Below, in pieces: positions 978-21,817 of a stretch of DNA of 53,148 bases; position 1 is the stretch's first letter, and the number at the start of each line of letters is the position of its first letter. The translations under genes and the position numbers were made by a program. The notes under the pieces are model-generated. The model made no database searches, had not been told where the DNA came from, and was given only the letters and a program-made list of their open reading frames with translations. The stretch is from positions 1-53,148 of IMG/VR virus record IMGVR_UViG_3300044640_000694. One strand, 5' to 3'. The stretch comes from a virus.

Positions 978-1217
978 TTAATTTATCGAACGCTTTATGA
1001 GCGACTCAAATACCGCTCGTTTTAAAACCGAAAGATCTATTTTTGCCGAAGCCTCATACTTGTCTATTTCTTCAAGTGCCAGTAGCGTGAGGTCTTCTCT
1101 AACATAGGCCACTCGCTCGTAGAAGTTATCTAGATCTTCTTCTTTGATGTGTGGACCATCGCAATCCCAGCTGCTCACACAGAATGGACATAGGTATTTC
1201 CCATCATTCAGTTTCAT
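978..1217 (-). CDS. Small hypothetical protein with N-terminal Cys/His cluster
   Basis: A 79-residue protein with CPFC at residues 10-13, then C19 and H23, a possible small zinc site, followed by a charged helical C-terminal half. Its ATG overlaps the end of the beta-hydroxylase-like gene by 14 bases, so it is the third gene of the sulfotransferase operon (2443, 1797, 1217). The role is unknown. The 128 bases between its end and the 849 gene hold no further supported gene, only the promoter at 856-861. Confidence 0.55.
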   Translation of the reverse strand: MKLNDGKYLCPFCVSSWDCDGPHIKEEDLDNFYERVAYVREDLTLLALEEIDKYEASAKIDLSVLKRAVFESLIKRSIN

Positions 1218-1797
1218 CGATAAACCTTATTCCTTCCAGGTATTCGTTTGGTAAAACATCAAGGATTAGATGAATCCTGTTGTCATCACTAGCATTTTTG
1301 ACACTGTGATACTTTATGTTATTAAGCTCGTACAATATTCCAGTTTTTAAATTTCTAACGTCTATTCCAGAAGAAAACGTAACAAGATAATTTGTTTTAA
1401 TTGGAATATGAAATCTTCTAGCCACATATAGGACATCAGATCTATCTTTGTGTGTCCTTATTCTGCTTCTTGGCTTCATATTGATAAACTCTGCACGGAT
1501 AAGCTTTCCACCTGCCAAAGACTCTACATAGCTAACAATGTCAGCAAATTCTTTTCTGGCTGCATCTGATGACAGGTTTCTTTTAGTTACACAAATACCG
1601 TCTGTTCCAAAGCTGTGGAAATAGTCCAGGGACCTTATCTCAAAAGCAAAGGTATCTTTATGAGTCTCATATGAATTTTGACGACTTGTATCTATCAGCC
1701 ACTCATCATAATAGGATAATACTTCTTTAGATATAGATTCTATAGCTACCTCGCCAAATTCTTCAAAGCACCAGTCATCACGCTTGTTTTTTAGCAT
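1204..1797 (-). CDS. Aspartyl/asparaginyl beta-hydroxylase-like 2-oxoglutarate oxygenase
   Basis: A 197-residue protein whose second half matches the aspartyl/asparaginyl beta-hydroxylase (Asp_Arg_Hydrox) pattern. RTHKD supplies H116 and D118, FHIPI follows at about 130, and YHSVKNAS with H164 is followed by NRIHLILD with R174. In the family the two His (with or without the Asp) hold iron and the Arg binds 2-oxoglutarate. The fold is a double-stranded beta-helix. Family members hydroxylate Asp or Asn side chains in proteins, and the substrate here is unknown. The start overlaps the sulfotransferase gene by 20 bases, so the two are translated together. This is a different subfamily from the six oxygenases at 16271-21817. 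Confidence 0.75.
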   Translation of the reverse strand: MLKNKRDDWCFEEFGEVAIESISKEVLSYYDEWLIDTSRQNSYETHKDTFAFEIRSLDYFHSFGTDGICVTKRNLSSDAARKEFADIVSYVESLAGGKLIRAEFINMKPRSRIRTHKDRSDVLYVARRFHIPIKTNYLVTFSSGIDVRNLKTGILYELNNIKYHSVKNASDDNRIHLILDVLPNEYLEGIRFIDETE

Positions 1798-3550: not shown

Positions 3551-4276
3551 ATGGCAATCAGTAAAAGCATGGACTTTCCGTCTAGCAAAAAAACTGGATA
3601 TGCTGAAGTTGCACAACAATCTCAAATTCTAGATCCTCAAATATCATATATACCAGTTCCAGGACCTCAAGGTCCAGCAGGCGATCCAGGTGCTCAGGGT
3701 CCTAGAGGAGAAAAGGGTGAGCGTGGAGAAAAGGGTGACCCTGGTCCACGTGGAGAGTCAGGAAAGCCTGGTAAAAATGGACAGGATGGAAAAACCTATT
3801 TACCAGTTTATGGACAGGATGCAGGGTGGGCAAGGTATTTTGATAAAAAAGAAAAGATAGTTCCTATAGGTGCAACCAGAGGAATCGATGGCTGGGTAAC
3901 TATTAATCTAGATATCTCAAAATCAGATGAGAAATATTTGCCAACAAACTCTGTTAGTCTTTATAATGAGAACTCAAAAAGAATAAATCTAAAATGGTTA
4001 AAGATAGGGTCTCAGGTAGACATTACCTACACATTTGAGGTAGAGACATTTTCAAATAATACTGAGTTGTGGTGTCGAACAATATTCCCAGGCACTGATA
4101 GTCAAACAACGTCTCTCGTTGGAACTCTTAAATATCAATATCTATATGAGTTTTCAATTACTCACAAGGTATATGTTGATAGTGAAATGATTAAGATTAA
4201 TGGAGCAGCTGTACAGCTACGTTCAGATATAGATGCCTTGGCCAGACTAACATCTATAGCAATTTCTGTATCTTAG
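3551..4276 (+). CDS. Collagen-like virion fibre protein
   Basis: A 241-residue protein. Residues 38-79 are fourteen uninterrupted Gly-X-Y triplets (GPQGPAGDPG... to GQDG), the sequence of a collagen triple helix. Pro occupies the Y position in three triplets (GDP twice, GKP) and Lys in two (GEK twice), the sites collagen prolyl and lysyl hydroxylases modify. About 35 N-terminal residues may anchor the protein. The C-terminal 160 residues look like a beta-rich head that could trimerise or bind a receptor. Collagen stalks are known in phage tail fibres. The six P4H-type oxygenases at 16271-21817 make it a candidate substrate, by inference only. The sequence AGGA precedes the ATG. Confidence 0.8.
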   Translation: MAISKSMDFPSSKKTGYAEVAQQSQILDPQISYIPVPGPQGPAGDPGAQGPRGEKGERGEKGDPGPRGESGKPGKNGQDGKTYLPVYGQDAGWARYFDKKEKIVPIGATRGIDGWVTINLDISKSDEKYLPTNSVSLYNENSKRINLKWLKIGSQVDITYTFEVETFSNNTELWCRTIFPGTDSQTTSLVGTLKYQYLYEFSITHKVYVDSEMIKINGAAVQLRSDIDALARLTSIAISVS

Positions 4277-6614: not shown

Positions 6615-7595
6615 ATGGTAAATGCATTTGGTTACTATGCATCTGCAAAGGGAATGGTTTTGGTTCCAGATCTTTCTGGCCTTTCCTCTGCTGCAGCAAT
6701 TGCTTTGCTAGAGTCTAATGGCTTAAACTACTCTCTAGGTTCCGATGTAGATACAAACAACGGTGCCCTAGACAATCTAGTTGCTGAACAAAGTCCAGCT
6801 TCAAATACCCTAGTTGACTATGAAACAGTTGTTCAGTTTAGACTTTACAACCTAGTTGTAATTCCACCATTCTTCCCATTCTTCCCATCATTCCCACCAT
6901 CTGTGGCACTAACGCTGACCTCTCTTGGTGAAACTTCTGTGAGGGTAGAGTGGACAGCCTCTAACTTTACTCAAACATCCTTCAAAGTTAATCGTAATGG
7001 AAGTATTATTGGACCAAGCAATAGCACAGAGACATCATTCGTTGATAATGGTTTAGATTGTGGCGTTAATTATGCATATACTCTAACACTCTATAGTGGA
7101 CCAGATGGGACTGGAAGTGAAGTTTCAGACATAGAAAGCGTAACTACTGATGCCTGTACAAACCTATATACAGTAAACTATGAATGCAATGGTGGTACTG
7201 GATGTCCAAGCGATACCACTCATAATGGAAGCTTTACTATAACTGGATCAGCACCAACGCTATCTGGTTTTGTATTTAATGGATATCATGTTTACTGTAA
7301 TTCCAGCTTTATTGGAAACTATCAACCAGGTGCAACAGTTTCTTGTGCAGGAAACCTAGAAATCCAGGCACAGTGGTCATCAGCACCACCATTCTTCCCA
7401 TTCTTCCCATTCTTCCCAACATTCCAACCAACAATATATGGAACAGGATGCTGTGCTGATGGGGCGACTGTTACTGATACAAGCACATCAGAGCAGGTAC
7501 TGCTTGACTCCCTAGAAACTAAGTGTCTTAACAGGGGATCTATTCTAGTCAATTCAGCAACTAGCCTTGTTACCTACCCAACACTTAATTGCTAG
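6615..7595 (+). CDS. PASTA / Fn3 / InlB-repeat virion protein with FFP linkers
   Basis: A 326-residue multidomain protein. In order: a PASTA-like domain (about 15-78, VPDLSGLSSAAAIALLESNGL... AEQSPASNTLVDYETVVQF), a Phe-Pro linker (about 84-97, PPFFPFFPSFPPS), a fibronectin type III domain (about 98-180), an InlB/Listeria-Bacteroides-type repeat (about 184-256, VNYECNGGTG... FNGYHVYC... LEIQAQW), a second linker (PPFFPFFPFFPTF) and a Cys-containing C-terminal domain. PASTA domains bind cell-wall muropeptides and the other domains are adhesion modules, so a host-surface binding role is likely. The FFP linkers are shared with the 15443 protein. It ends cassette A, with AGGTGA before the ATG. 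Confidence 0.7.
   Translation: MVNAFGYYASAKGMVLVPDLSGLSSAAAIALLESNGLNYSLGSDVDTNNGALDNLVAEQSPASNTLVDYETVVQFRLYNLVVIPPFFPFFPSFPPSVALTLTSLGETSVRVEWTASNFTQTSFKVNRNGSIIGPSNSTETSFVDNGLDCGVNYAYTLTLYSGPDGTGSEVSDIESVTTDACTNLYTVNYECNGGTGCPSDTTHNGSFTITGSAPTLSGFVFNGYHVYCNSSFIGNYQPGATVSCAGNLEIQAQWSSAPPFFPFFPFFPTFQPTIYGTGCCADGATVTDTSTSEQVLLDSLETKCLNRGSILVNSATSLVTYPTLNC
6864..6902 (+). repeat. FFP repeat linker 1
   Basis: Imperfect 9-base repeats of cca-ttc-ttc encode PPFFPFFPSFPPS between the PASTA-like and Fn3 domains. Confidence 0.7.
7385..7430 (+). repeat. FFP repeat linker 2
   Basis: Near-identical cca-ttc-ttc units encode PPFFPFFPFFPTF between the InlB-type repeat and the C-terminal domain. The DNA-level similarity to linker 1 suggests recent unit duplication. 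Confidence 0.7.
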
Positions 7596-13707: not shown

Positions 13708-15423
13708 ATGGCAACAAGAATGCAGCAACGTAGAGGAACAGAGTCTCAGTGGGGCACTGCTAACCCTATTCTAGCAGCTGGTGAGATCGGTTTTGAAATC
13801 GATACAAATAAATTTAAGATTGGTGACGGAATCAATCACTGGGATGACCTTGACTACTTTACTAGCTCATCTGAGCTACTAGCTATTGTTGATGGTGCAC
13901 CAGAGCTTTTGGATACCCTTAACGAAATAGCTGCAGCAATTGGTGATGACCCAAACTTCTCATCTAAGGTTGTTCCTATTGTCAAGAAGACTACCGTTCA
14001 GTGGACTGCAGACACATCTGCTATCGCAGCAGGAACCCTGGCATATGACACAACCACAGGAAAGTTTAAGATTGGAAACGGTACTGATACCTGGAGCAAT
14101 ACATCCTATCTAATCAATGCTCTAGAGATGAATGAGTCTATTACCTCAGGAATTACAGCTAGAATCGGAAGTCTTACAGTAACAGAGGCTGAGTATCTAT
14201 CTGGTGCTACAGCATCTATTCAGGGACAACTAGATGATCTTGCTGCTGCTGACGTAAGCATTCAAAGTGAGCTAGATGATAAGGCAACAACCTCTAACCC
14301 TACTTTTACTGGAACAGTAGTATTGCCAACAAGCACATCTATTGGCGATGTTTCTTCTACAGAAATTGGCTATCTAAATGGCGTAACTTCTGGAATTCAG
14401 ACTCAACTAGATGCAAAGCTTGCATCAGCTACTGCATCATCAACATATGCACCACTAAGCGGACCAACCTTTACAGGAACAGTAGTTCTTCCAAGCACTA
14501 CCTCGATCGGAGATGTTTCATCTACTGAGCTTGGATATGTAAATGGTGTTACATCTGCCATTCAGACACAGCTAGATGCTAAGGCACCTACAGCAGATCC
14601 AACATTTACTGGAACTGTTTCTGGTGTCACAAAGACTCACGTAGGACTTGGTAACGTAGACAACACATCTGACGCTAACAAGCCAGTATCTACAGCCACT
14701 CAAACTGCACTTGATGCGAAGGCAAACCTTTCTGGTGCAACTTTTACTGGTGATGTAACTGTAGAAACAGACCTAATTGTTGATGGTAACCTAACTGTTT
14801 CTGGTACTACAACTACAGTTTCTGCACAAGACCTAGTTGTTTCTGACCCACTAATCTATATTGGTGAGGGAAATACCGCTAATCTAGTTGACATTGGTCT
14901 AGTTGGATCATTCGACAATGGAACCTATCAGCACTCAGGTATCGTTCGTGATGCCTCTGCTGGAAAGTGGAAGCTTTTCAAGGGCGTAACTGATGAACCA
15001 ACAACTACTGTTAACTTTGGACAAGGATCTCTTGATGACCTTGCTGTTAATAATGTTGAGGTTTCTGGAGTTGTATTCTCTGACGGCACTCAGACAAAGC
15101 AGGGTGTTCCATCTATCACTACAATCAGTGCAAAGACAGACTCATATACACTTTCTAACCTAGATGAACGTGATACAATTGTTGAGATTAATAAGTCAAC
15201 TGCAACTACTTTGACTATTCCAACAAATGCTTCAGTAGCTTATCCAGTAGGAACAACGCTTGATATTATTCAAACTGGTACTGGGCAGGTGACAATTGCT
15301 GGAGCAGGTGGGGTTACTGTAAATGCAACTCCAGGACTAAAGCTTAGAACCCAGTGGTCTTCTGCAACACTTCTAAAGCGAGCAGAAAACACATGGTTGG
15401 TCTACGGAGACCTAACAGCATAA
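13708..15423 (+). CDS. Tail fibre with RRGT-type N-terminal domain
   Basis: A 571-residue fibre. Residues 6-50 (QQRRGTESQWG...GEIGFEIDTNKFKIGDG) form the domain found at the start of many phage tail fibres, and a degenerate second copy (about 93-130) follows. The shaft has repeats of TSIGDVSSTEIGYLNGVTSGIQTQLDAK type. A THVGLGNVDNTSDANKPVS unit, typical of tail fibres, follows. The final 100 residues are the module shared with the 5971 protein. The next gene encodes an FFP-repeat protein, as in cassette A. Confidence 0.75.
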   Translation: MATRMQQRRGTESQWGTANPILAAGEIGFEIDTNKFKIGDGINHWDDLDYFTSSSELLAIVDGAPELLDTLNEIAAAIGDDPNFSSKVVPIVKKTTVQWTADTSAIAAGTLAYDTTTGKFKIGNGTDTWSNTSYLINALEMNESITSGITARIGSLTVTEAEYLSGATASIQGQLDDLAAADVSIQSELDDKATTSNPTFTGTVVLPTSTSIGDVSSTEIGYLNGVTSGIQTQLDAKLASATASSTYAPLSGPTFTGTVVLPSTTSIGDVSSTELGYVNGVTSAIQTQLDAKAPTADPTFTGTVSGVTKTHVGLGNVDNTSDANKPVSTATQTALDAKANLSGATFTGDVTVETDLIVDGNLTVSGTTTTVSAQDLVVSDPLIYIGEGNTANLVDIGLVGSFDNGTYQHSGIVRDASAGKWKLFKGVTDEPTTTVNFGQGSLDDLAVNNVEVSGVVFSDGTQTKQGVPSITTISAKTDSYTLSNLDERDTIVEINKSTATTLTIPTNASVAYPVGTTLDIIQTGTGQVTIAGAGGVTVNATPGLKLRTQWSSATLLKRAENTWLVYGDLTA

Positions 15424-15442: not shown

Positions 15443-16210
15443 ATGGCAGCAGGAAAAAGATCAGGAAGAAAGTCTCAGGCATCCAATGACTTTTTGGAGC
15501 CATTGGCACCAACAAGCGTAACTGCAACTGACGTTGGCACTAACAGAGCATTCAACAATGGAGCTGCTTCTGTAAGCTTTTCATTACCAGCACTTTCTCC
15601 TGCAGCAACTTCCTATACAGTAACTGCAACTGCAGCAGGTCAGACAACTAGAACTGCTACTGGATCTTCATCTCCGATTGTTGTAGAAAATCTTTCTTCT
15701 AACGTTACCTATACGGTTAGTGTGACCGCTACAAATGCAGCTGGAACATCTCCAGCATCATCTACTACTACCGTCACAGCTACAACAGTTCCTGCAACTA
15801 TGTCAGCCCCAACAGCTACTGCTCAAACCAATCAGGACAAGCTTGACTGGACGGCTCCAAGCGATGGAGGTAAGTCAATTACACTATATCGCTGGACATC
15901 TTCTGACAATAAGACTGGTACAGTAAATGCTCCTGCTACTACAACCAATATTACTCAGGAAGGCGGAACAGCTCAGACATATCAGATTCGTGCTGAAAAT
16001 GCAAATGGTGTTGGTGTGTATTCTCCTGACTCTAATAGCGTAACAACTATTTCTCCATTTTTCCCACCGTTCTTCCCACCATTTTTCCCACCAAGCTTCC
16101 CATACTTTCCACCGTTCTTCCCGTTCTTCCCGTTCTTCCCAGGGTTTGGACCTTACTTCCCACCTTACTTCCCACCATTCTTTAGGAGTGGAGTGGGTGG
16201 ACCATTCTAA
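15443..16210 (+). CDS. Fn3 virion protein with FFPP-repeat tail
   Basis: A 255-residue protein. A basic start (MAAGKRSGRKSQ) is followed by two fibronectin type III domains (about 22-115 and 116-200). The C-terminus (about 203-255) is an extreme low-complexity sequence of FFPP and FFP units ending RSGVGGPF. About 80% of this tail is Phe or Pro, so it should be a stiff, very hydrophobic, surface-active extension. It lacks the PASTA and InlB-type domains of the 6615 protein but shares the Fn3 and FFP features. AAGGGAAGG precedes the ATG. If the oxygenases downstream hydroxylate proline, this tail is the densest target in the window. Confidence 0.7.
   Translation: MAAGKRSGRKSQASNDFLEPLAPTSVTATDVGTNRAFNNGAASVSFSLPALSPAATSYTVTATAAGQTTRTATGSSSPIVVENLSSNVTYTVSVTATNAAGTSPASSTTTVTATTVPATMSAPTATAQTNQDKLDWTAPSDGGKSITLYRWTSSDNKTGTVNAPATTTNITQEGGTAQTYQIRAENANGVGVYSPDSNSVTTISPFFPPFFPPFFPPSFPYFPPFFPFFPFFPGFGPYFPPYFPPFFRSGVGGPF
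16054..16185 (+). repeat. FFPP repeat array
   Basis: Tandem 9- and 12-base units (ttc-ttc-cca-cca) encode FFPP and FFP repeats. Third-position differences between units show the array is not a very recent slippage product. Confidence 0.75.
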
Positions 16211-16226
16211 TCTAAAATAAAAGCAG

Positions 16227-16252
16227 GGGCCTAGGTGAAATATCCTAGGCCC
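16227..16252 (+). terminator. Palindromic hairpin between fibre and oxygenase genes
   Basis: A 9-bp perfect stem GGGCCTAGG/CCTAGGCCC with an 8-base loop. No T run follows on the + strand and an A-rich stretch precedes it. It may act as a terminator on either strand or a processing site. The promoter of the oxygenase block starts six bases later. Confidence 0.5.
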
Positions 16253-16257
16253 TATGC

Positions 16258-16263
16258 TATAAT
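16258..16263 (+). promoter_or_regulatory. Extended -10 promoter of the oxygenase block
   Basis: TGCTATAAT, 7 bases, then the ATG at 16271. It directly follows the hairpin, so the oxygenase genes are transcribed separately from the fibres. Confidence 0.55.
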
Positions 16264-16270
16264 TGAGGAT

Positions 16271-17005
16271 ATGAATACTTGGCTAACAAAAGATAGATCA
16301 GAAACAGACTCAAACAGAATGCCATCTAGGGTAACTCCTAGTGGTATTGTAGTAACTAATCCAGCATTAGGTATTAATGTTTATAACAATGCTATTAGTG
16401 AATCCCTATGTGATTTTATTATTAATACATTAGAAGACAACCTTAATGGTCAAACTAAGTATACTTGGCAGGGTGCTAAGGTTACAGAAGCAGACGATGT
16501 TCTGGAAGAGGCTAGAAAGTGTTTAGACTTTAAGGTAAGTTCTCAAAACCTTGGCCCTAGAGATAACGACAACGCAAAGCTATATGATATGCATGAATTG
16601 GCATTTAGATCAATTCAGCCAAACGTTGATGACTATGGTCGATACTGGGGTGTTGGCGTTAATTTCTTTGAGGCATTTAACTTTGTAAAGTATGATGGTG
16701 CAGGCACACACTTTAAGATACACGCTGACCATGGTCCAGCTTACGTAACTACCATTTCTGTAGTAGCATATGTTAATGATGACTATGAGGGTGGAGAATT
16801 GTACTTTCCAAGATTTAATCTAACCCTTAAGCCAAAGAAGGGCGATGTTATGGTCTTCCCATCAACATATATTTATGAGCATGCCTCTAATGATATGATT
16901 TCTGGCACTAAGTATGCAATTGTTATTATGACTGACTATAATGACCGTGGTGGACTAAGAAACTTTAACTATCGTCAAGAAGACATGAATAGACTAACTT
17001 ATTAA
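16271..17005 (+). CDS. 2-oxoglutarate/Fe(II) oxygenase, P4H type, copy 1
   Basis: A 244-residue protein with the prolyl-4-hydroxylase catalytic pattern: HFKIHADHG gives the iron ligands H151 and D153, YVNDDYEGGELYFPR (about 168-181) is the family signature, and H204 (third ligand) is followed by K214 (2-oxoglutarate) in SGTKYAIVIM. Such enzymes use O2, iron and 2-oxoglutarate to hydroxylate a side chain, most often proline, but some act on nucleic acid bases or small molecules. All catalytic residues are present. The start at 16271 follows from the leaderless promoter. A GTG at 16235 would read through the hairpin. It is the first of six homologues. Confidence 0.8.
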   Translation: MNTWLTKDRSETDSNRMPSRVTPSGIVVTNPALGINVYNNAISESLCDFIINTLEDNLNGQTKYTWQGAKVTEADDVLEEARKCLDFKVSSQNLGPRDNDNAKLYDMHELAFRSIQPNVDDYGRYWGVGVNFFEAFNFVKYDGAGTHFKIHADHGPAYVTTISVVAYVNDDYEGGELYFPRFNLTLKPKKGDVMVFPSTYIYEHASNDMISGTKYAIVIMTDYNDRGGLRNFNYRQEDMNRLTY

Positions 17006-17015
17006 GGAGAATTTA

Positions 17016-17720
17016 ATGTCTGATCAAGAAGATCTAAATAAAAGAATTCAAGATTTTTACAAAATAGATGAAATTACGTGGTCCTCTATTGAAGATTTTG
17101 GTAACGGCATTATTGTTTATCGTGATGTTCTGCCAAAGAGCATGGATATTATCAATAGGCTTGAAGAAGTTTTAAATGATCCAACAAATTTTTATGAGTA
17201 TCAAGAGGCCATGGTTGGCTACGGTATGAAGATTCCAGAATACCGTGACTGTAAAGATTTTAAATACAAGAAGTCAGATATTGCCGATCACCCAGGTGAG
17301 GCAGCAGAAAAACTACGTCAGTTATGGGATGATGTATACTTTAGACAGCTACAGGCAGTAAAGCACTATTGCAAGATGCACAATATTGGTGAACTTAGGT
17401 ATTGGGAAGCAATGAACTTTATTAAGTATGGACCAGGCCAGCACTTCCAGGAACATCATGACAATGGCTACTCATACAACTGTGTTCTTTCTGCAGTATC
17501 TTATCCAAATGATGACTACGAAGGCGGAGAGCTTTTCTTTAGACTTCAAAACCTCAACATTAAGGCAAGGGCTGGAGACTTATATCTTTTCCCATCTAAC
17601 TTTATGTATCCGCATCGTGCTATGCCAGTACATTCTGGAGTCAAGTATTCAATCGTTACAATGCTTGACTATTCGGACAAATACCACAAACCAGAATTTT
17701 ATATGGAGACGGGTAATTAG
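17016..17720 (+). CDS. 2-oxoglutarate/Fe(II) oxygenase, P4H type, copy 2
   Basis: A 234-residue paralogue with iron ligands H147 and D149 (HFQEHHDNG), the signature YPNDDYEGGELFF (163-175), and H200 with K210 in HSGVKYSIVTMLDY. About 130 N-terminal residues precede the core and differ from copy 1, so substrate recognition may differ. AAGGAG precedes the ATG, 10 bases after copy 1. The stop overlaps the GTG of the next gene (TAGTG), tying it to the DUF6065-like pair. Confidence 0.8.
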   Translation: MSDQEDLNKRIQDFYKIDEITWSSIEDFGNGIIVYRDVLPKSMDIINRLEEVLNDPTNFYEYQEAMVGYGMKIPEYRDCKDFKYKKSDIADHPGEAAEKLRQLWDDVYFRQLQAVKHYCKMHNIGELRYWEAMNFIKYGPGQHFQEHHDNGYSYNCVLSAVSYPNDDYEGGELFFRLQNLNIKARAGDLYLFPSNFMYPHRAMPVHSGVKYSIVTMLDYSDKYHKPEFYMETGN

Positions 17721-18430
17721 TGAAAGATATAGCTGTCTATAGACTAGGTAGCAGCTCTGCAAATATAGATCAGCTACCACTTAAAAGAGATTGGATGGAT
17801 CTAACCTTTGATAGACACGCATATCAGTGCTTTCCAGTTTCTTTAGCAAATCGTTTAGGATGGTATGTATCGTTTCCAGAAGACATATCTTTTATTTGGG
17901 ACGGTATAAATGACTCAACCTCTGGACACGTATCAATACTCTCTGGAGAAAGATATGTTCATCCAAATAGAGGTAACAGAACTATAAGCTTTAATACTGG
18001 AATATACTTCTCATCTAAGAAAAATGTGTCACTTTTAACAATGCCAGTGCCAAACCAATTTATAGAAGGCACACAGTGTTTTACCACTTTGCTGAGTACA
18101 TCAGTTCTAGAGAATGATTTTCCAATAGCCTGGATAGTAAACAAGCCAAATGAAGTTATCACTATTCCAGCAAACACACCAATAGCTGCAATTCTGCCAA
18201 TATCTCTAAATGATGTTCAGTCTTATAGTCTTAATGTTATAGACGGAATTCCAGAATTGTGGAAATCATCTGAATGGTCAAAAAGAATGAGCGATAGGGC
18301 AAAAGCTTCTGAAGCAAAAAATTCAGTAGGCGATTGGACACATTATTATCGTGATGCAGTTGATCATAACGGAGATATTGTTGGTGAGCACGAAGCTAAA
18401 AAGATTATAATGAAAGTTACAAATGGCTAA
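17720..18430 (+). CDS. DUF6065-like protein, copy 1
   Basis: A 236-residue protein with a GTG start overlapping the stop of oxygenase copy 2. Features are FPVSLANRLGWYVSFPEDISFIWDG near 38-62 and a later IPANTPIAAILPISL (about 152-166). The layout (a FP..AN..GW motif, then a G/P-rich loop with IPxxTPxAxIxP) reminds me of DUF6065, a family of unknown function. No catalytic residues can be named. It is related to the next gene and lies inside the oxygenase block, so it may supply or bind the same substrate. The stop overlaps the next start by 8 bases. Confidence 0.5.
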   Translation: MKDIAVYRLGSSSANIDQLPLKRDWMDLTFDRHAYQCFPVSLANRLGWYVSFPEDISFIWDGINDSTSGHVSILSGERYVHPNRGNRTISFNTGIYFSSKKNVSLLTMPVPNQFIEGTQCFTTLLSTSVLENDFPIAWIVNKPNEVITIPANTPIAAILPISLNDVQSYSLNVIDGIPELWKSSEWSKRMSDRAKASEAKNSVGDWTHYYRDAVDHNGDIVGEHEAKKIIMKVTNG

Positions 18431-19151
18431 GTCTATTAAGTTTATTTCAAATAGATCTTGGTTAACATCAGATAGTCAATCAAAACCAACTCCTACTAGC
18501 AAGTCTATTCCAGTATGGTATAAAGACGCTGATAGATATGCTATGAGACCAGATGGTGAGCCTTGGATAGGACAGGATGGTGGCAGAGTTGTTACATGGA
18601 AAGCTTGTCCTGCACTTTATGACATCATGACAACTGGATATGTTTATCGAACACCATGCGATATTGAATTTTATCTTAATGATTCTGGAGTAATCTCAGT
18701 AAAAATTTTAGATGATCAGTACAAGGATTTTATTCAAGCCAGGGATCCAATGCCACAGTTTGAGGTTCCTTGGGGATATTATGAGAATCACTTTGCTTGG
18801 TGGGCAGACTGGGCAGTCGAACTGCCATCTGGATATAGTGCTCTATACTCACAGCCATTTAATAGATTTGACCTGCCATTTTTAACTACTAGTGGAATCA
18901 TTGATAATGATAAGGTTCATCTGCCTGGAACAATGCCATTTTTTATAGCCAAGGGATTTGCTGGGGTAATTCCAGCAGGAACTCCATATGCACAAATAGT
19001 TCCATTTAAGCGTGAAGACTGGAAGTCAGAAATAGTAATAGAGGACCCTAAAGAGCTTTATACAAAGAATATGGCAAATACTTTTAAGTATAGAAAACCA
19101 AGCGGTGGCATATACCAGCGTGACGTTTGGGAAAGACGTAAGTACGAGTAA
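18423..19151 (+). CDS. DUF6065-like protein, copy 2
   Basis: A 242-residue protein, divergent paralogue of the 17720 gene. Both contain a W/F-rich central sheet and a closing loop: here MPFFIAKGFAGVIPAGTPYAQIVPFKRE (about 178-205), there IPANTPIAAILPISL. The N-terminal part has IPVWYKDADRY and CPALYDIMTTGY. It is translationally coupled to its partner, which suggests the two act together, perhaps as a heterodimer. The reaction is unknown. Confidence 0.5.
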   Translation: MAKSIKFISNRSWLTSDSQSKPTPTSKSIPVWYKDADRYAMRPDGEPWIGQDGGRVVTWKACPALYDIMTTGYVYRTPCDIEFYLNDSGVISVKILDDQYKDFIQARDPMPQFEVPWGYYENHFAWWADWAVELPSGYSALYSQPFNRFDLPFLTTSGIIDNDKVHLPGTMPFFIAKGFAGVIPAGTPYAQIVPFKREDWKSEIVIEDPKELYTKNMANTFKYRKPSGGIYQRDVWERRKYE

Positions 19152-19156
19152 CGTGC

Positions 19157-19162
19157 TATAAT
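19157..19162 (+). promoter_or_regulatory. Extended -10 promoter, second oxygenase unit
   Basis: TGCTATAAT, 6 bases, then the ATG at 19169. It splits the block into a first unit (16271-19151) and a second (19169-21817). Confidence 0.55.
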
Positions 19163-19168
19163 TGATTT

Positions 19169-19852
19169 ATGGAAAATCAATATACTAATAATCATAACGA
19201 GAACCCCGTATCAATAACGCCATCTGGATTCTTTGGAAATGGCCCAGAGATGATAGGAACTCTTGAAAATTTTTTAACGGAAGAAGAGCTTCAGGCATTA
19301 AATGGATTTATTCGCAACAATGAAACTTGGGATGTTACTCAAACACACTATAACGAAGACGGAACTGTAATCTATGATTCTGGATATTGGGACGGTCGTG
19401 TAGCAACCTATCCAACAATTAATCAGACAAGCCCTGAAACGGTACAAATGATTAGATCAATCGTTAAAAGATTGAAGGTTGAGATTGATAAGTTCTTTAA
19501 TGTAAGTGCTTCCCCAACATCGCCAGCACTTGTCCGCTGGCTTCCAGGCAATTTACAGATGCCTCACGCAGACAAAGAATTACATGAGGGAGATAATGCA
19601 GGAAAGCCTAATGACTTTCCTTGGTACGACATTGCTACAATTATCTATCTAAATGATGACTATGAAGGTGGAGAGCTATATTTTCCAAACCAGGGAATCC
19701 AATTTAAGCCAAAGCGTGGAGCTGCTTACTTCTTCCCTGGAGACATGAACTATATTCATGGCATAACTACAATAGAGTCTGGAATTAGGTATACCTGCCC
19801 ATTCTTCTGGACTATCACTGCTCACAATAATTCGGAGGTAGGCAATGTCTAA
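19169..19852 (+). CDS. 2-oxoglutarate/Fe(II) oxygenase, P4H type, copy 3
   Basis: A 227-residue paralogue. Iron ligands are H133 and D135 (MPHADKELHEGDN), the signature is YLNDDYEGGELYFP (160-173), and H197 with R207 follow in IHGITTIESGIRYTCPFFW. The 2-oxoglutarate anchor is Arg here and Lys in copies 1, 2 and 6. The longer loop after HxD (ELHEGDNAGKPNDF) is shared with copies 4 and 5, which suggests that copies 3-5 form one subgroup. The end overlaps copy 4 by 8 bases. Confidence 0.8.
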   Translation: MENQYTNNHNENPVSITPSGFFGNGPEMIGTLENFLTEEELQALNGFIRNNETWDVTQTHYNEDGTVIYDSGYWDGRVATYPTINQTSPETVQMIRSIVKRLKVEIDKFFNVSASPTSPALVRWLPGNLQMPHADKELHEGDNAGKPNDFPWYDIATIIYLNDDYEGGELYFPNQGIQFKPKRGAAYFFPGDMNYIHGITTIESGIRYTCPFFWTITAHNNSEVGNV

Positions 19853-20570
19853 TATTATCAATAAAGATAGTTTTATATATTATAAGGATGAGCCAATAGA
19901 GAATAGCATTCTTGGAATCAAAGATAATAGAATCGTAGAGATTCCAAACTTTGTAAGTCCAGAAGATGCAAAAAATATGATTAACTACTTTGAGGCAAAG
20001 GCTGAAATGTGGGGAGATATTGCTTTTTATGGTTCTTCTGGCATGGGGTTGCAACCAAATGACCCAATGCTTGCAGACTATCACTTGCCTGGAGACTTTT
20101 TCGATAACTTGCGTGAGCAGTTTAAGGCAAATGTAGAGGCTGTTTTTGGTAGAGAAGTAAAGGCAAACACTTCGCATGCACAAAAGTGGGATGTTGGAGG
20201 ATTTGCCAATCCACACTCAGACAACTCTGATAACCACGGAGAACCCAATGCCTTTGAGATTAACAAGTATGTGGCAATCCTGTACCTAAATGGAGATTAT
20301 GAAGGCGGAGACCTCTATTTCCCAGATCACGACATTTCGTTCAAGCCAACCCCATATGCACTAATTACTTTTCCTGGTGGGGTAGAGAATATTCACGGAG
20401 TTACAGAAATTACTGCTGGCACTAGATATACTATGGTTTCTTTCTGGGACTTTGCTGACGCAGAGTATTCTGAAGAAAAGAAGACTTGGTGGGAAGAAGA
20501 GACAAGAAAAGTTAGAGAGCAACAAGCTAAGCAAAAAGAGGAGTGGGCTAAGGGCAATAAGCTTGCCTAA
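19845..20570 (+). CDS. 2-oxoglutarate/Fe(II) oxygenase, P4H type, copy 4
   Basis: A 241-residue paralogue. H124 and D126 (NPHSDNSDNHGEPNAF), the signature YLNGDYEGGDLYFPDHDISFKP (147-168), and H184 with R194 (IHGVTEITAGTRYTM) complete the site. The N-terminus (VEIPNFVSPEDAKNMINYFE) is the usual start of the P4H fold. A highly charged helical tail (about 207-241) is added. GGAGG lies eight bases before the ATG. It is closest to copy 5. Confidence 0.8.
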   Translation: MSNIINKDSFIYYKDEPIENSILGIKDNRIVEIPNFVSPEDAKNMINYFEAKAEMWGDIAFYGSSGMGLQPNDPMLADYHLPGDFFDNLREQFKANVEAVFGREVKANTSHAQKWDVGGFANPHSDNSDNHGEPNAFEINKYVAILYLNGDYEGGDLYFPDHDISFKPTPYALITFPGGVENIHGVTEITAGTRYTMVSFWDFADAEYSEEKKTWWEEETRKVREQQAKQKEEWAKGNKLA

Positions 20571-20575
20571 TAATT

Positions 20576-21226
20576 ATGGAAAAGATTGTTCATAAACACG
20601 ATATTGTAGAGTTTCCAAACTTTTTATCAGGCGAGGAATGTCAAAAGCTTATAAGCTATTATGATGCTGGAGACTCTTTGTGGCAAGAAACTTGTTTCTT
20701 TAATGCCCGTGTAATGGATCCAAACGGACCAAAGAGCCAGCTTGGCATAGAGTTATTTAATCCAAACTTTTTTGAAGAGTTGAGACAGTCTCTAAAAAAT
20801 ATGGCTGAAGATGTTATGGGTAGACCAGTAAGAAATCTTACACTGAGTGCTCACAAGTGGCTTCCAGGAGCTTACGCAGGAGACCATGCAGACAATGCAG
20901 AGCTAGATGGAACCCCAAATGCCTGGCAAGATAATAAGCTTGTTACAATTATTTATCTTAATGATAACTATGAGGGCGGAAATCTCGCATTTAGAGATCA
21001 TGATATTTCTATTGCACCAAAGGCAGGAACGGTAATTGTATTTGATGTTGGCATTGATAATGTTCATTCAGTAACTGAGGTTACATCTGGAGAGCGTTAT
21101 ACGATGCTTCTATCTTGGGACTATGCAGATATAGACTATCCAGAAGGATTCCTAGAAGAGCTTGCAAGATTAAAGATGGCTGAGCAGCCAAAGCAAGATG
21201 AGCAAAAGAAGCAATGGAAGTCTTAA
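20576..21226 (+). CDS. 2-oxoglutarate/Fe(II) oxygenase, P4H type, copy 5
   Basis: A 216-residue paralogue, closest to copy 4: VEFPNFLSGEECQKLISYYD at the N-terminus, H104 and D106 (GDHADNAELDGTPNAW), the signature YLNDNYEGGNLAFRDHDISIAP, and H164 with R174 (VHSVTEVTSGERYTM). It also ends in a charged tail. It begins five bases after copy 4 and its stop abuts copy 6, so all are expressed together. No key residue is lost. Confidence 0.8.
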   Translation: MEKIVHKHDIVEFPNFLSGEECQKLISYYDAGDSLWQETCFFNARVMDPNGPKSQLGIELFNPNFFEELRQSLKNMAEDVMGRPVRNLTLSAHKWLPGAYAGDHADNAELDGTPNAWQDNKLVTIIYLNDNYEGGNLAFRDHDISIAPKAGTVIVFDVGIDNVHSVTEVTSGERYTMLLSWDYADIDYPEGFLEELARLKMAEQPKQDEQKKQWKS

Positions 21227-21817
21227 ATGTCATCTAAGCCTATAGTGTTTTCAGAAAAAATATTTTACTACGAATCTGTCATTGAAGATCCAAAAGGCCT
21301 AATAGAGGCAATTGAGTTATCAAACAATGACCTGTCCGAAGCCTCGTTAATATCTAGCTGGCATTCCTGGTCATCTAGTAATGGCTCTTATGTATTTGGT
21401 GAAAGAAAAACTACAAATCCAGATGCCTATATTTCAGCAGCTGAAAATGTAAGGCTCATCTTTTCACTATTGAAGGATACCCTTTCAGAATATGGTCAAG
21501 ATTACGCAAATACTCTTGGAATAAAATTAGGAACACAGATGCCAATAAGCATAAGTAAGTATTTTACGGGGGCATCCATGGGACCGCATACAGATTCTTC
21601 ACCAAATCCTACAACAGAGCATATTTCTGCTGTCCTATATCTCAATGATGACTATTCTGGTGGAGAAATTGCCTTTCCAGATCAGGAAGTAGTCATTAAG
21701 CCAACTGCTGGCAGTCTGGTAATCTTTCCATCAATACCGCCATTCTTTCATGAGTCTAGAGAGATTTTGAGTGGAACAAAGTACATGTCGCCAGCCTTTT
21801 GGCATTTGTTGGCTTAG
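21227..21817 (+). CDS. 2-oxoglutarate/Fe(II) oxygenase, P4H type, copy 6
   Basis: A 196-residue paralogue, the shortest and most divergent. Iron ligands are H121 and D123 (MGPHTDSSPNPTTEH), the signature is YLNDDYSGGEIAFPDQEVVIKP (138-159), and H175 with K185 follow (FFHESREILSGTKYMSPAFWH). The ATG immediately follows the previous stop. It closes the oxygenase block, and the next gene is a large minor tail protein. Confidence 0.8.
   Translation: MSSKPIVFSEKIFYYESVIEDPKGLIEAIELSNNDLSEASLISSWHSWSSSNGSYVFGERKTTNPDAYISAAENVRLIFSLLKDTLSEYGQDYANTLGIKLGTQMPISISKYFTGASMGPHTDSSPNPTTEHISAVLYLNDDYSGGEIAFPDQEVVIKPTAGSLVIFPSIPPFFHESREILSGTKYMSPAFWHLLA

What the first reader, a model, noticed from the sequence alone, without database searches (positions are those of the whole stretch)
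15443..16210. Extreme FFPP tail on a virion Fn3 protein
The last 50 or so residues are almost only Phe and Pro, with a few Tyr, Gly and Ser. I know of no standard domain with this composition. A Phe/Pro-dense, solvent-exposed extension could insert into or stick to a mycolate or other lipid surface, stack into an aromatic polyproline rod, or serve as a hydroxylation substrate. The gene sits 61 bases before the first oxygenase gene.
Basis: partly seen in the sequence, partly recalled or inferred. Interest (0 to 1): 0.72.

Follow-up and report, generated by a model that had tools for sequence, protein, structure and literature searches.

The report
Phe/Pro stalk with dedicated prolyl hydroxylase
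A tail-region protein of this uncultured phage ends in a run of almost pure phenylalanine and proline; hundreds of related environmental phages carry such runs, almost always next to a gene for a prolyl-hydroxylase-like enzyme, so the run is probably a stalk that the phage chemically modifies, which would give viral prolyl hydroxylases a candidate target.

Summary
Residues 203-249 of the 255-aa product hold 19 Phe and 18 Pro in 47 (binomial P about 1e-32), after Fn3 domains. Arrays sit C-terminally, before Cys-rich caps or intein-like Hint domains, or between domains, so they behave as spacers. They track 2OG-Fe(II) oxygenases of prolyl-hydroxylase type: 43/44 array contigs carry them, against 0/23 random viral contigs. 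An oxygenase-seeded search that ignored the array found one upstream in 71 of 73 testable loci. The array-adjacent enzymes mostly form one clade, and array unit type covaries with enzyme subtype. Collagen-like genes do not track the enzymes. Best explanation: an aromatic polyproline stalk that is the hydroxylation substrate of the neighbouring enzymes. Linkage is shown; hydroxylation, rod structure and virion location are inferred. Lipid insertion has no support. A hairpin plus extended -10 promoter separates the two genes, so they are probably not co-transcribed.

The parts
15443..16210 (+). Fn3-array protein, 255 aa; basic N-terminus with conserved NDFLEP motif, Fn3 domains, Phe/Pro array, 8-residue C-terminal end
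16055..16183 (+). Phe/Pro array proper (residues 205-247)
16227..16252 (.). hairpin (9-bp perfect stem) between array gene and oxygenase 1; stem sequence differs among close relatives but mostly stays paired
   Evidence: (z -5.2)
16255..16263 (+). extended -10 promoter TGCTATAAT, 7 nt before the conserved ATG of oxygenase 1 (leaderless start inferred)
16271..17005 (+). oxygenase 1 (array-linked clade), PF13640, HxD...H...K intact
17016..17720 (+). oxygenase 2 (sister type; adjacent enzyme of FFxPP arrays in relatives)
17720..18430 (+). DUF6065 protein, near-constant in the cassette (29/30)
18423..19151 (+). phrog_7084 protein of unknown function, constant in the cassette (30/30)
19169..19852 (+). 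oxygenase 3 (PF13640)
19845..20570 (+). oxygenase 4 (PF13640)
20576..21226 (+). oxygenase 5 (PF13640)
21227..21817 (+). oxygenase 6 (PF13640)
13708..15423 (+). Mtd_N-type minor tail protein upstream of the array gene (27/30 in relatives)
6615..7595 (+). second array-bearing protein: PASTA + array linker + Fn3-like + array linker + Cys-containing end
3551..4276 (+). collagen-like Gly-X-Y protein, rival substrate for the oxygenases

Best explanation
The array is an extended aromatic polyproline spacer (stalk). It carries the far end of a tail-region Fn3 protein away from the virion and is the substrate of the prolyl-hydroxylase-like 2OG-Fe(II) oxygenases encoded just downstream, oxygenase 1 first among them. 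Hydroxylated prolines would make an otherwise greasy Phe/Pro run soluble and stiff, as hydroxyproline does in collagen and extensins. Shown: the array, its spread, its spacer-like positions, its tight linkage to one enzyme clade, intact catalytic residues. Inferred: hydroxylation of its Pro, a polyproline-II rod, presence in virions, solubility or stiffness as the benefit.
For: Array contigs >=20 kb with PF13640: 43/44, most with 5-12 copies; random viral contigs 0/23 and 0 in 635 kb. Major-capsid relatives >=20 kb: 10/10 array-positive have >=5 copies vs 2/27 array-negative (p 1.9e-7); >=50 kb only: 5/5 vs 1/10 (p 0.002). Oxygenase-1-seeded, array-blind search: 71 of 73 testable loci have the array gene upstream. 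Fn3-seeded search: 74/80 have an array by the strict test; of the six others, L458 is cut within an array, L493, L495 and L499 have FGFTPF or SF[TV]P[FY] arrays, and two were not resolved by the script. Array-adjacent enzymes largely form one clade: 32 of 45 in a clade of 36 rows with one array-less row. FFPP arrays pair with oxygenase-1 type (99 vs 13), FFxPP arrays with oxygenase-2 type (0 vs 8; p 2e-7, not corrected for kinship). HxD...H...K/R kept in all six enzymes; best PDB profile matches are prolyl 3-hydroxylase 1 and Bacillus-type P4H, with chlorella virus P4H lower. Collagen-like genes do not track: 10/44 array contigs over cut-off, 0/30 within 5 kb of oxygenase 1.
Against: Linkage is not activity. 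Fn3 scaffold, array and oxygenase 1 travel as one cassette (63/63 testable pre-array regions are one family), and the Mtd_N tail protein is nearly as well linked (27/30), so another tail protein could be the substrate. Phylogenetically independent pairs agree 3/3 but are too few (p 0.25). Contig fragments inflate joint absence. Six oxygenases are many for one simple array. Prolyl-hydroxylase-like genes of many other phages lack arrays nearby (about 10 of 120 motif-sampled stretches have one, though many are short fragments). No hydroxyproline was found in chlorella virus PBCV-1 particles although that virus has a P4H (reference 162 in PMC7019647). A hairpin and own promoter separate the genes.
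Confidence: 0.5

Rival explanations
1. The array is a structural spacer only; the oxygenases modify another protein of the same tail module, such as the Mtd_N tail protein, and share the locus because the module moves as a block.
For: Mtd_N gene 27/30 and array gene 30/30 near oxygenase 1; one scaffold family throughout; P4H-like genes exist without arrays.
Against: Array unit type covaries with the adjacent enzyme subtype; arrays on the few non-Fn3 scaffolds also have an oxygenase within 5 kb (7 of 8 evaluable); Pro-rich sequence is the expected substrate of the nearest enzyme families.
Confidence: 0.27
2. The array is a membrane- or envelope-adhesive tail that sticks to a lipid surface of the host.
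For: Extreme hydrophobicity; array at or within 15 residues of the C-terminus in 57 of 146 uncut unique proteins.
Against: 89 of the 146 have further residues: Cys-rich caps (32 of 46 short caps have >=4 Cys), Hint/intein domains, S74 chaperone, further Fn3/Ig domains. Same-window protein 6615-7595 uses arrays as inter-domain linkers. The tight link to oxygenases is unexplained.
Confidence: 0.08
3. The array is the target of the oxygenases for another residue (Phe or Tyr hydroxylation) or primes further modification, e.g. glycosylation of hydroxyproline.
For: Phe is the commonest residue and 5-12 different oxygenases per phage suggest more than one product; DUF6065 and phrog_7084 are constant unexplained partners.
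Against: Nearest characterised relatives act on Pro or Lys; no glycosyltransferase was recognised among the cassette genes scanned.
Confidence: 0.1
4. A slippage-generated low-complexity run with no function.
For: Tandem repeats of 9-24 bp are present; array length varies 33-185 residues.
Against: Kept in nearly all complete family members in some aromatic/Pro form; neighbouring units use different codons; codon choice inside arrays differs sharply from the rest of the protein (TTC 90% vs 27%, CCG 24% vs 2.6%); nearly absent from the cellular genome hits.
Confidence: 0.03

Closest known systems
Chlorella virus PBCV-1 prolyl 4-hydroxylase (PDB 5c5t; Eriksson et al. 1999)
   Same: Virus-encoded P4H, profile match 3.5e-6; from memory, acts on proline-rich peptides
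   Different: Single enzyme of an algal virus; no dedicated adjacent array substrate known to me; no hydroxyproline detected in its virions
Collagen with collagen prolyl 3-/4-hydroxylases
   Same: Pro-rich rod plus dedicated hydroxylases; prolyl 3-hydroxylase 1 is the best PDB match to the window's enzymes (2.2e-11)
   Different: No Gly-X-Y; bulky Phe in place of Gly, so a collagen triple helix is excluded for the array
Plant extensins / Hyp-rich proteins and Chlamydomonas P4H
   Same: Non-collagen polyproline-type repeat modified by P4H (from general knowledge)
   Different: Ser/Pro-based and glycosylated; here Phe/Pro, in a phage tail module; profile match to Chlamydomonas P4H is weak (E 0.34)
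Phage tail Fn3 proteins (phrog_31, phrog_6977)
   Same: Fn3 domains in tail proteins (8e-5)
   Different: No Phe/Pro array in the matched parts; only weak Fn3-level similarity

Membership tests
Collagen-like repeat protein | Gly every third residue over a long run (PF01391) | tested here: not met
   Array has 2 Gly in 47; no PF01391 match in P0001
Fibronectin type III tail protein | PF00041 above curated cut-off | tested here: met
   33.8 bits vs 25
Fibronectin type III tail protein | Located in phage tail | tested here: inconclusive
   Weak PHROG tail hits, strong tail neighbour; no proteomics
2OG-Fe(II) oxygenase PF13640 (neighbour genes) | Profile match and HxD...H...K/R active site | tested here: met
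Prolyl hydroxylase (neighbour genes) | Sequence closest to enzymes that hydroxylate peptidyl Pro | tested here: met
   P3H1 2e-11, Bacillus-type P4H 7e-11; PKHD and lysyl hydroxylase relatives score lower; sequence only
Prolyl hydroxylase (neighbour genes) | Hydroxylates peptidyl proline | not testable with these tools
   needs biochemistry
Polyproline-II rod | Left-handed extended helix | not testable with these tools
   structure prediction switched off; needs CD/NMR
Dedicated enzyme-substrate cassette | Enzyme found with the array gene when searched without regard to it | tested here: met
   71/73

The most novel reading that the evidence does not exclude
A virus-specific structural polymer, aromatic-proline arrays post-translationally hydroxylated by a dedicated multi-enzyme phage cassette, is widespread in environmental phages and is the missing substrate of a large share of phage 'auxiliary' prolyl hydroxylases.
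Probability: 0.4. Interest if true: 0.88.

Novelty: new variant of a known kind. Interest (0 to 1): 0.7.

Why it matters
Prolyl-hydroxylase genes are abundant in aquatic phages, are filed as auxiliary metabolic genes, and one paper says that how viruses use them 'remains cryptic' (PMC9301287). The array gives a concrete, directly adjacent candidate substrate and a one-experiment test. If true, these genes move from host metabolism to virion construction. The Phe/Pro array itself appears undescribed in the papers held and could be a new kind of protein rod.

Tried and rejected
(1) BLAST of the protein and tail against cultured phages and plasmids: no match; the tail-only search is uninformative because the low-complexity filter masks it, but the Fn3 part also finds nothing. 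DNA search of the array gave only a 27-bp match in a Streptococcus satellite phage, probably a coincidence. (2) Cellular origin: the genome scan gave chance single hits apart from L164 and L195, which look like phage DNA in metagenome bins. (3) Collagen as the usual oxygenase partner: not supported. (4) G012 seemed to have oxygenases without an array; it has an HFPP array that the exact pattern missed. (5) Structure prediction: job interrupted, then tool switched off. (6) Phage tRNAs explaining the codon bias: none in the window. (7) Literature: no paper on such arrays found; DUF6065 has no paper. (8) Independent-pairs test: right direction, underpowered. (9) Clustering arrays by scaffold: single linkage lumped 90 of 98, so independence of scaffolds rests on few cases.

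Full report
WHAT IS THERE. The ORF at 15443-16210 (+) encodes 255 residues: a basic N-terminus, a Pfam fn3 domain (3.9e-8), a second Fn3-like stretch, and from residue 203 a run ISPFFPPFFPPFFPPSFPYFPPFFPFFPFFPGFGPYFPPYFPPFFRS with 19 Phe and 18 Pro in 47 residues, followed by GVGGPF. F+P make up 7.7% of the window's large proteins; the chance of such a run is about 1e-32. The window is a virus record of 53,148 bases. Its major capsid protein is 42% identical to those of Streptomyces phages, which hints at an actinobacterial host; nothing proves it.

IT IS WIDESPREAD AND VIRAL. In 257 Gb of cellular genomes the same pattern also reached its limit, but with scattered single hits; only two of the returned contigs have true arrays, and both look like phage DNA. 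No cultured phage or plasmid in the collections matched the protein. Units vary: FFPP, FFPFFP, HFPP, YFPP, FF[AS]PPG, [FY]SF[TV]P, always aromatic plus Pro. Arrays use TTC (90% vs 27% outside) and CCG (24% vs 2.6%), so codon choice there differs from the rest of the proteins.

ANATOMY. Of 159 unique array proteins, 13 are cut by contig ends; of the other 146, 57 end within 15 residues of the array, 46 have a 16-60-residue cap (32 with four or more Cys), and 43 have longer C-terminal parts. Among those 43, Pfam finds Fn3 (15), Intein_splicing (8), Hint_2 (3), PT-HINT (2), PASTA, Ig-like and Peptidase_S74 domains. In this same window, protein 6615-7595 carries two short arrays between PASTA, Fn3-like and C-terminal parts. 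A spacer or stalk fits these placements better than a free sticky tail.

LINK TO OXYGENASES. Six PF13640 proteins lie at 16235-21817, all with HxD...H...K/R. As a profile they resemble prolyl 3-hydroxylase 1 and bacterial prolyl 4-hydroxylases best. Several samplings agree. Array-seeded: 43/44 contigs of 20 kb or more carry PF13640, and an oxygenase lies within 1 kb downstream on the same strand in 54 of 84 evaluable cases. Random viral contigs: 0/23. Capsid-seeded: array and oxygenase cluster go together (10/10 vs 2/27, p 1.9e-7; >=50 kb: 5/5 vs 1/10, p 0.002); of the two exceptions one contig starts inside the cluster and the other has scattered genes. Fn3-seeded: 68 of 80 with array and oxygenase within 1 kb. 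Oxygenase-1-seeded, blind to arrays: 71 of 73 loci with enough upstream DNA have the array gene upstream. Most array-adjacent enzymes form one clade, and array unit type covaries with adjacent enzyme subtype.

WHAT THIS DOES NOT SHOW. Array, Fn3 scaffold and oxygenase 1 travel together, the Mtd_N tail protein is almost as tightly linked (27/30), and DUF6065 and phrog_7084 proteins are near-constant too. Linkage therefore names the module; the array is the most Pro-rich and most constant candidate, not a proven substrate. Independent pairs on the capsid tree agree 3/3, which cannot reach significance. Joint absence on fragments inflates the capsid-seeded test; the oxygenase-seeded test is free of that flaw. 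PBCV-1 is a warning: it has a P4H, yet no hydroxyproline was found in its particles.

REGULATION. Between the array stop and oxygenase 1 lies a 9-bp hairpin (16227-16252; z -5.2). Most close relatives keep a hairpin with a different, still paired stem, followed by TGnTATAAT and an ATG 6-7 nt later. The same promoter-ATG arrangement occurs before ORFs 4295, 7640, 9116 and 19169. Across 64 wider relatives an extended -10 is found near the start in 28, against 5% of random 151-base stretches, so it is common but not universal. The oxygenase block is thus probably transcribed on its own here, with a leaderless start.

MECHANISM. Most likely: the N-terminal part and Fn3 domains anchor the protein in the tail module, the array projects as an aromatic polyproline stalk, and oxygenase 1 with its neighbours hydroxylates it so that it is soluble and stiff. 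Shown steps are the sequence facts and linkage; all chemistry and structure are inference. Lipid insertion remains possible but has no positive evidence.

COMPARISON. It works like collagen or extensin with a dedicated hydroxylase, but is not collagen (no Gly-X-Y). I found no description of Phe/Pro arrays in the papers held. The use of viral prolyl hydroxylases is called cryptic in PMC9301287; this cassette makes that question directly testable.

Noticed in passing
window 16211-16271; also before ORFs 4295, 7640, 9116, 19169: Extended -10 TGnTATAAT followed 6-8 nt later by the start codon: a repeated leaderless-promoter arrangement; before oxygenase 1 it is preceded by a hairpin whose stem differs yet stays paired in most close relatives.
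   Followed up: partly
e.g. L009, L051, L081, L098, L107, L109, L446, L495, L499: Intein/Hint-type domains directly after the array, with Cys at the junction and, in several, HN near the C-terminus (...VHNK); self-cleavage at the end of the stalk, hedgehog- or BIL-like, is possible.
   Followed up: partly
window 17720-18430 and 18423-19151: DUF6065 and phrog_7084 proteins are near-constant members of the oxygenase cassette; function unknown.
   Followed up: partly
arrays in L421-L499: Strong codon bias inside arrays: TTC and CCG favoured against the rest of the same proteins.
   Followed up: partly
window 6615-7595: Second array protein, with PASTA and Fn3-like domains separated by Phe/Pro linkers.
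   Followed up: partly
window 1204-1797 (-): Aspartyl/asparaginyl beta-hydroxylase homologue (PF05118, 7e-11), a seventh putative 2OG oxygenase, of another family.
   Followed up: no
window 3551-4276: Collagen-like Gly-X-Y protein; collagen genes do not track the oxygenase cluster in relatives.
   Followed up: yes
L017, L031: A different scaffold with PPPPFFPPYFPP arrays followed by a Cys/Tyr/Gly-rich region, about 4.5 kb from an oxygenase.
   Followed up: no
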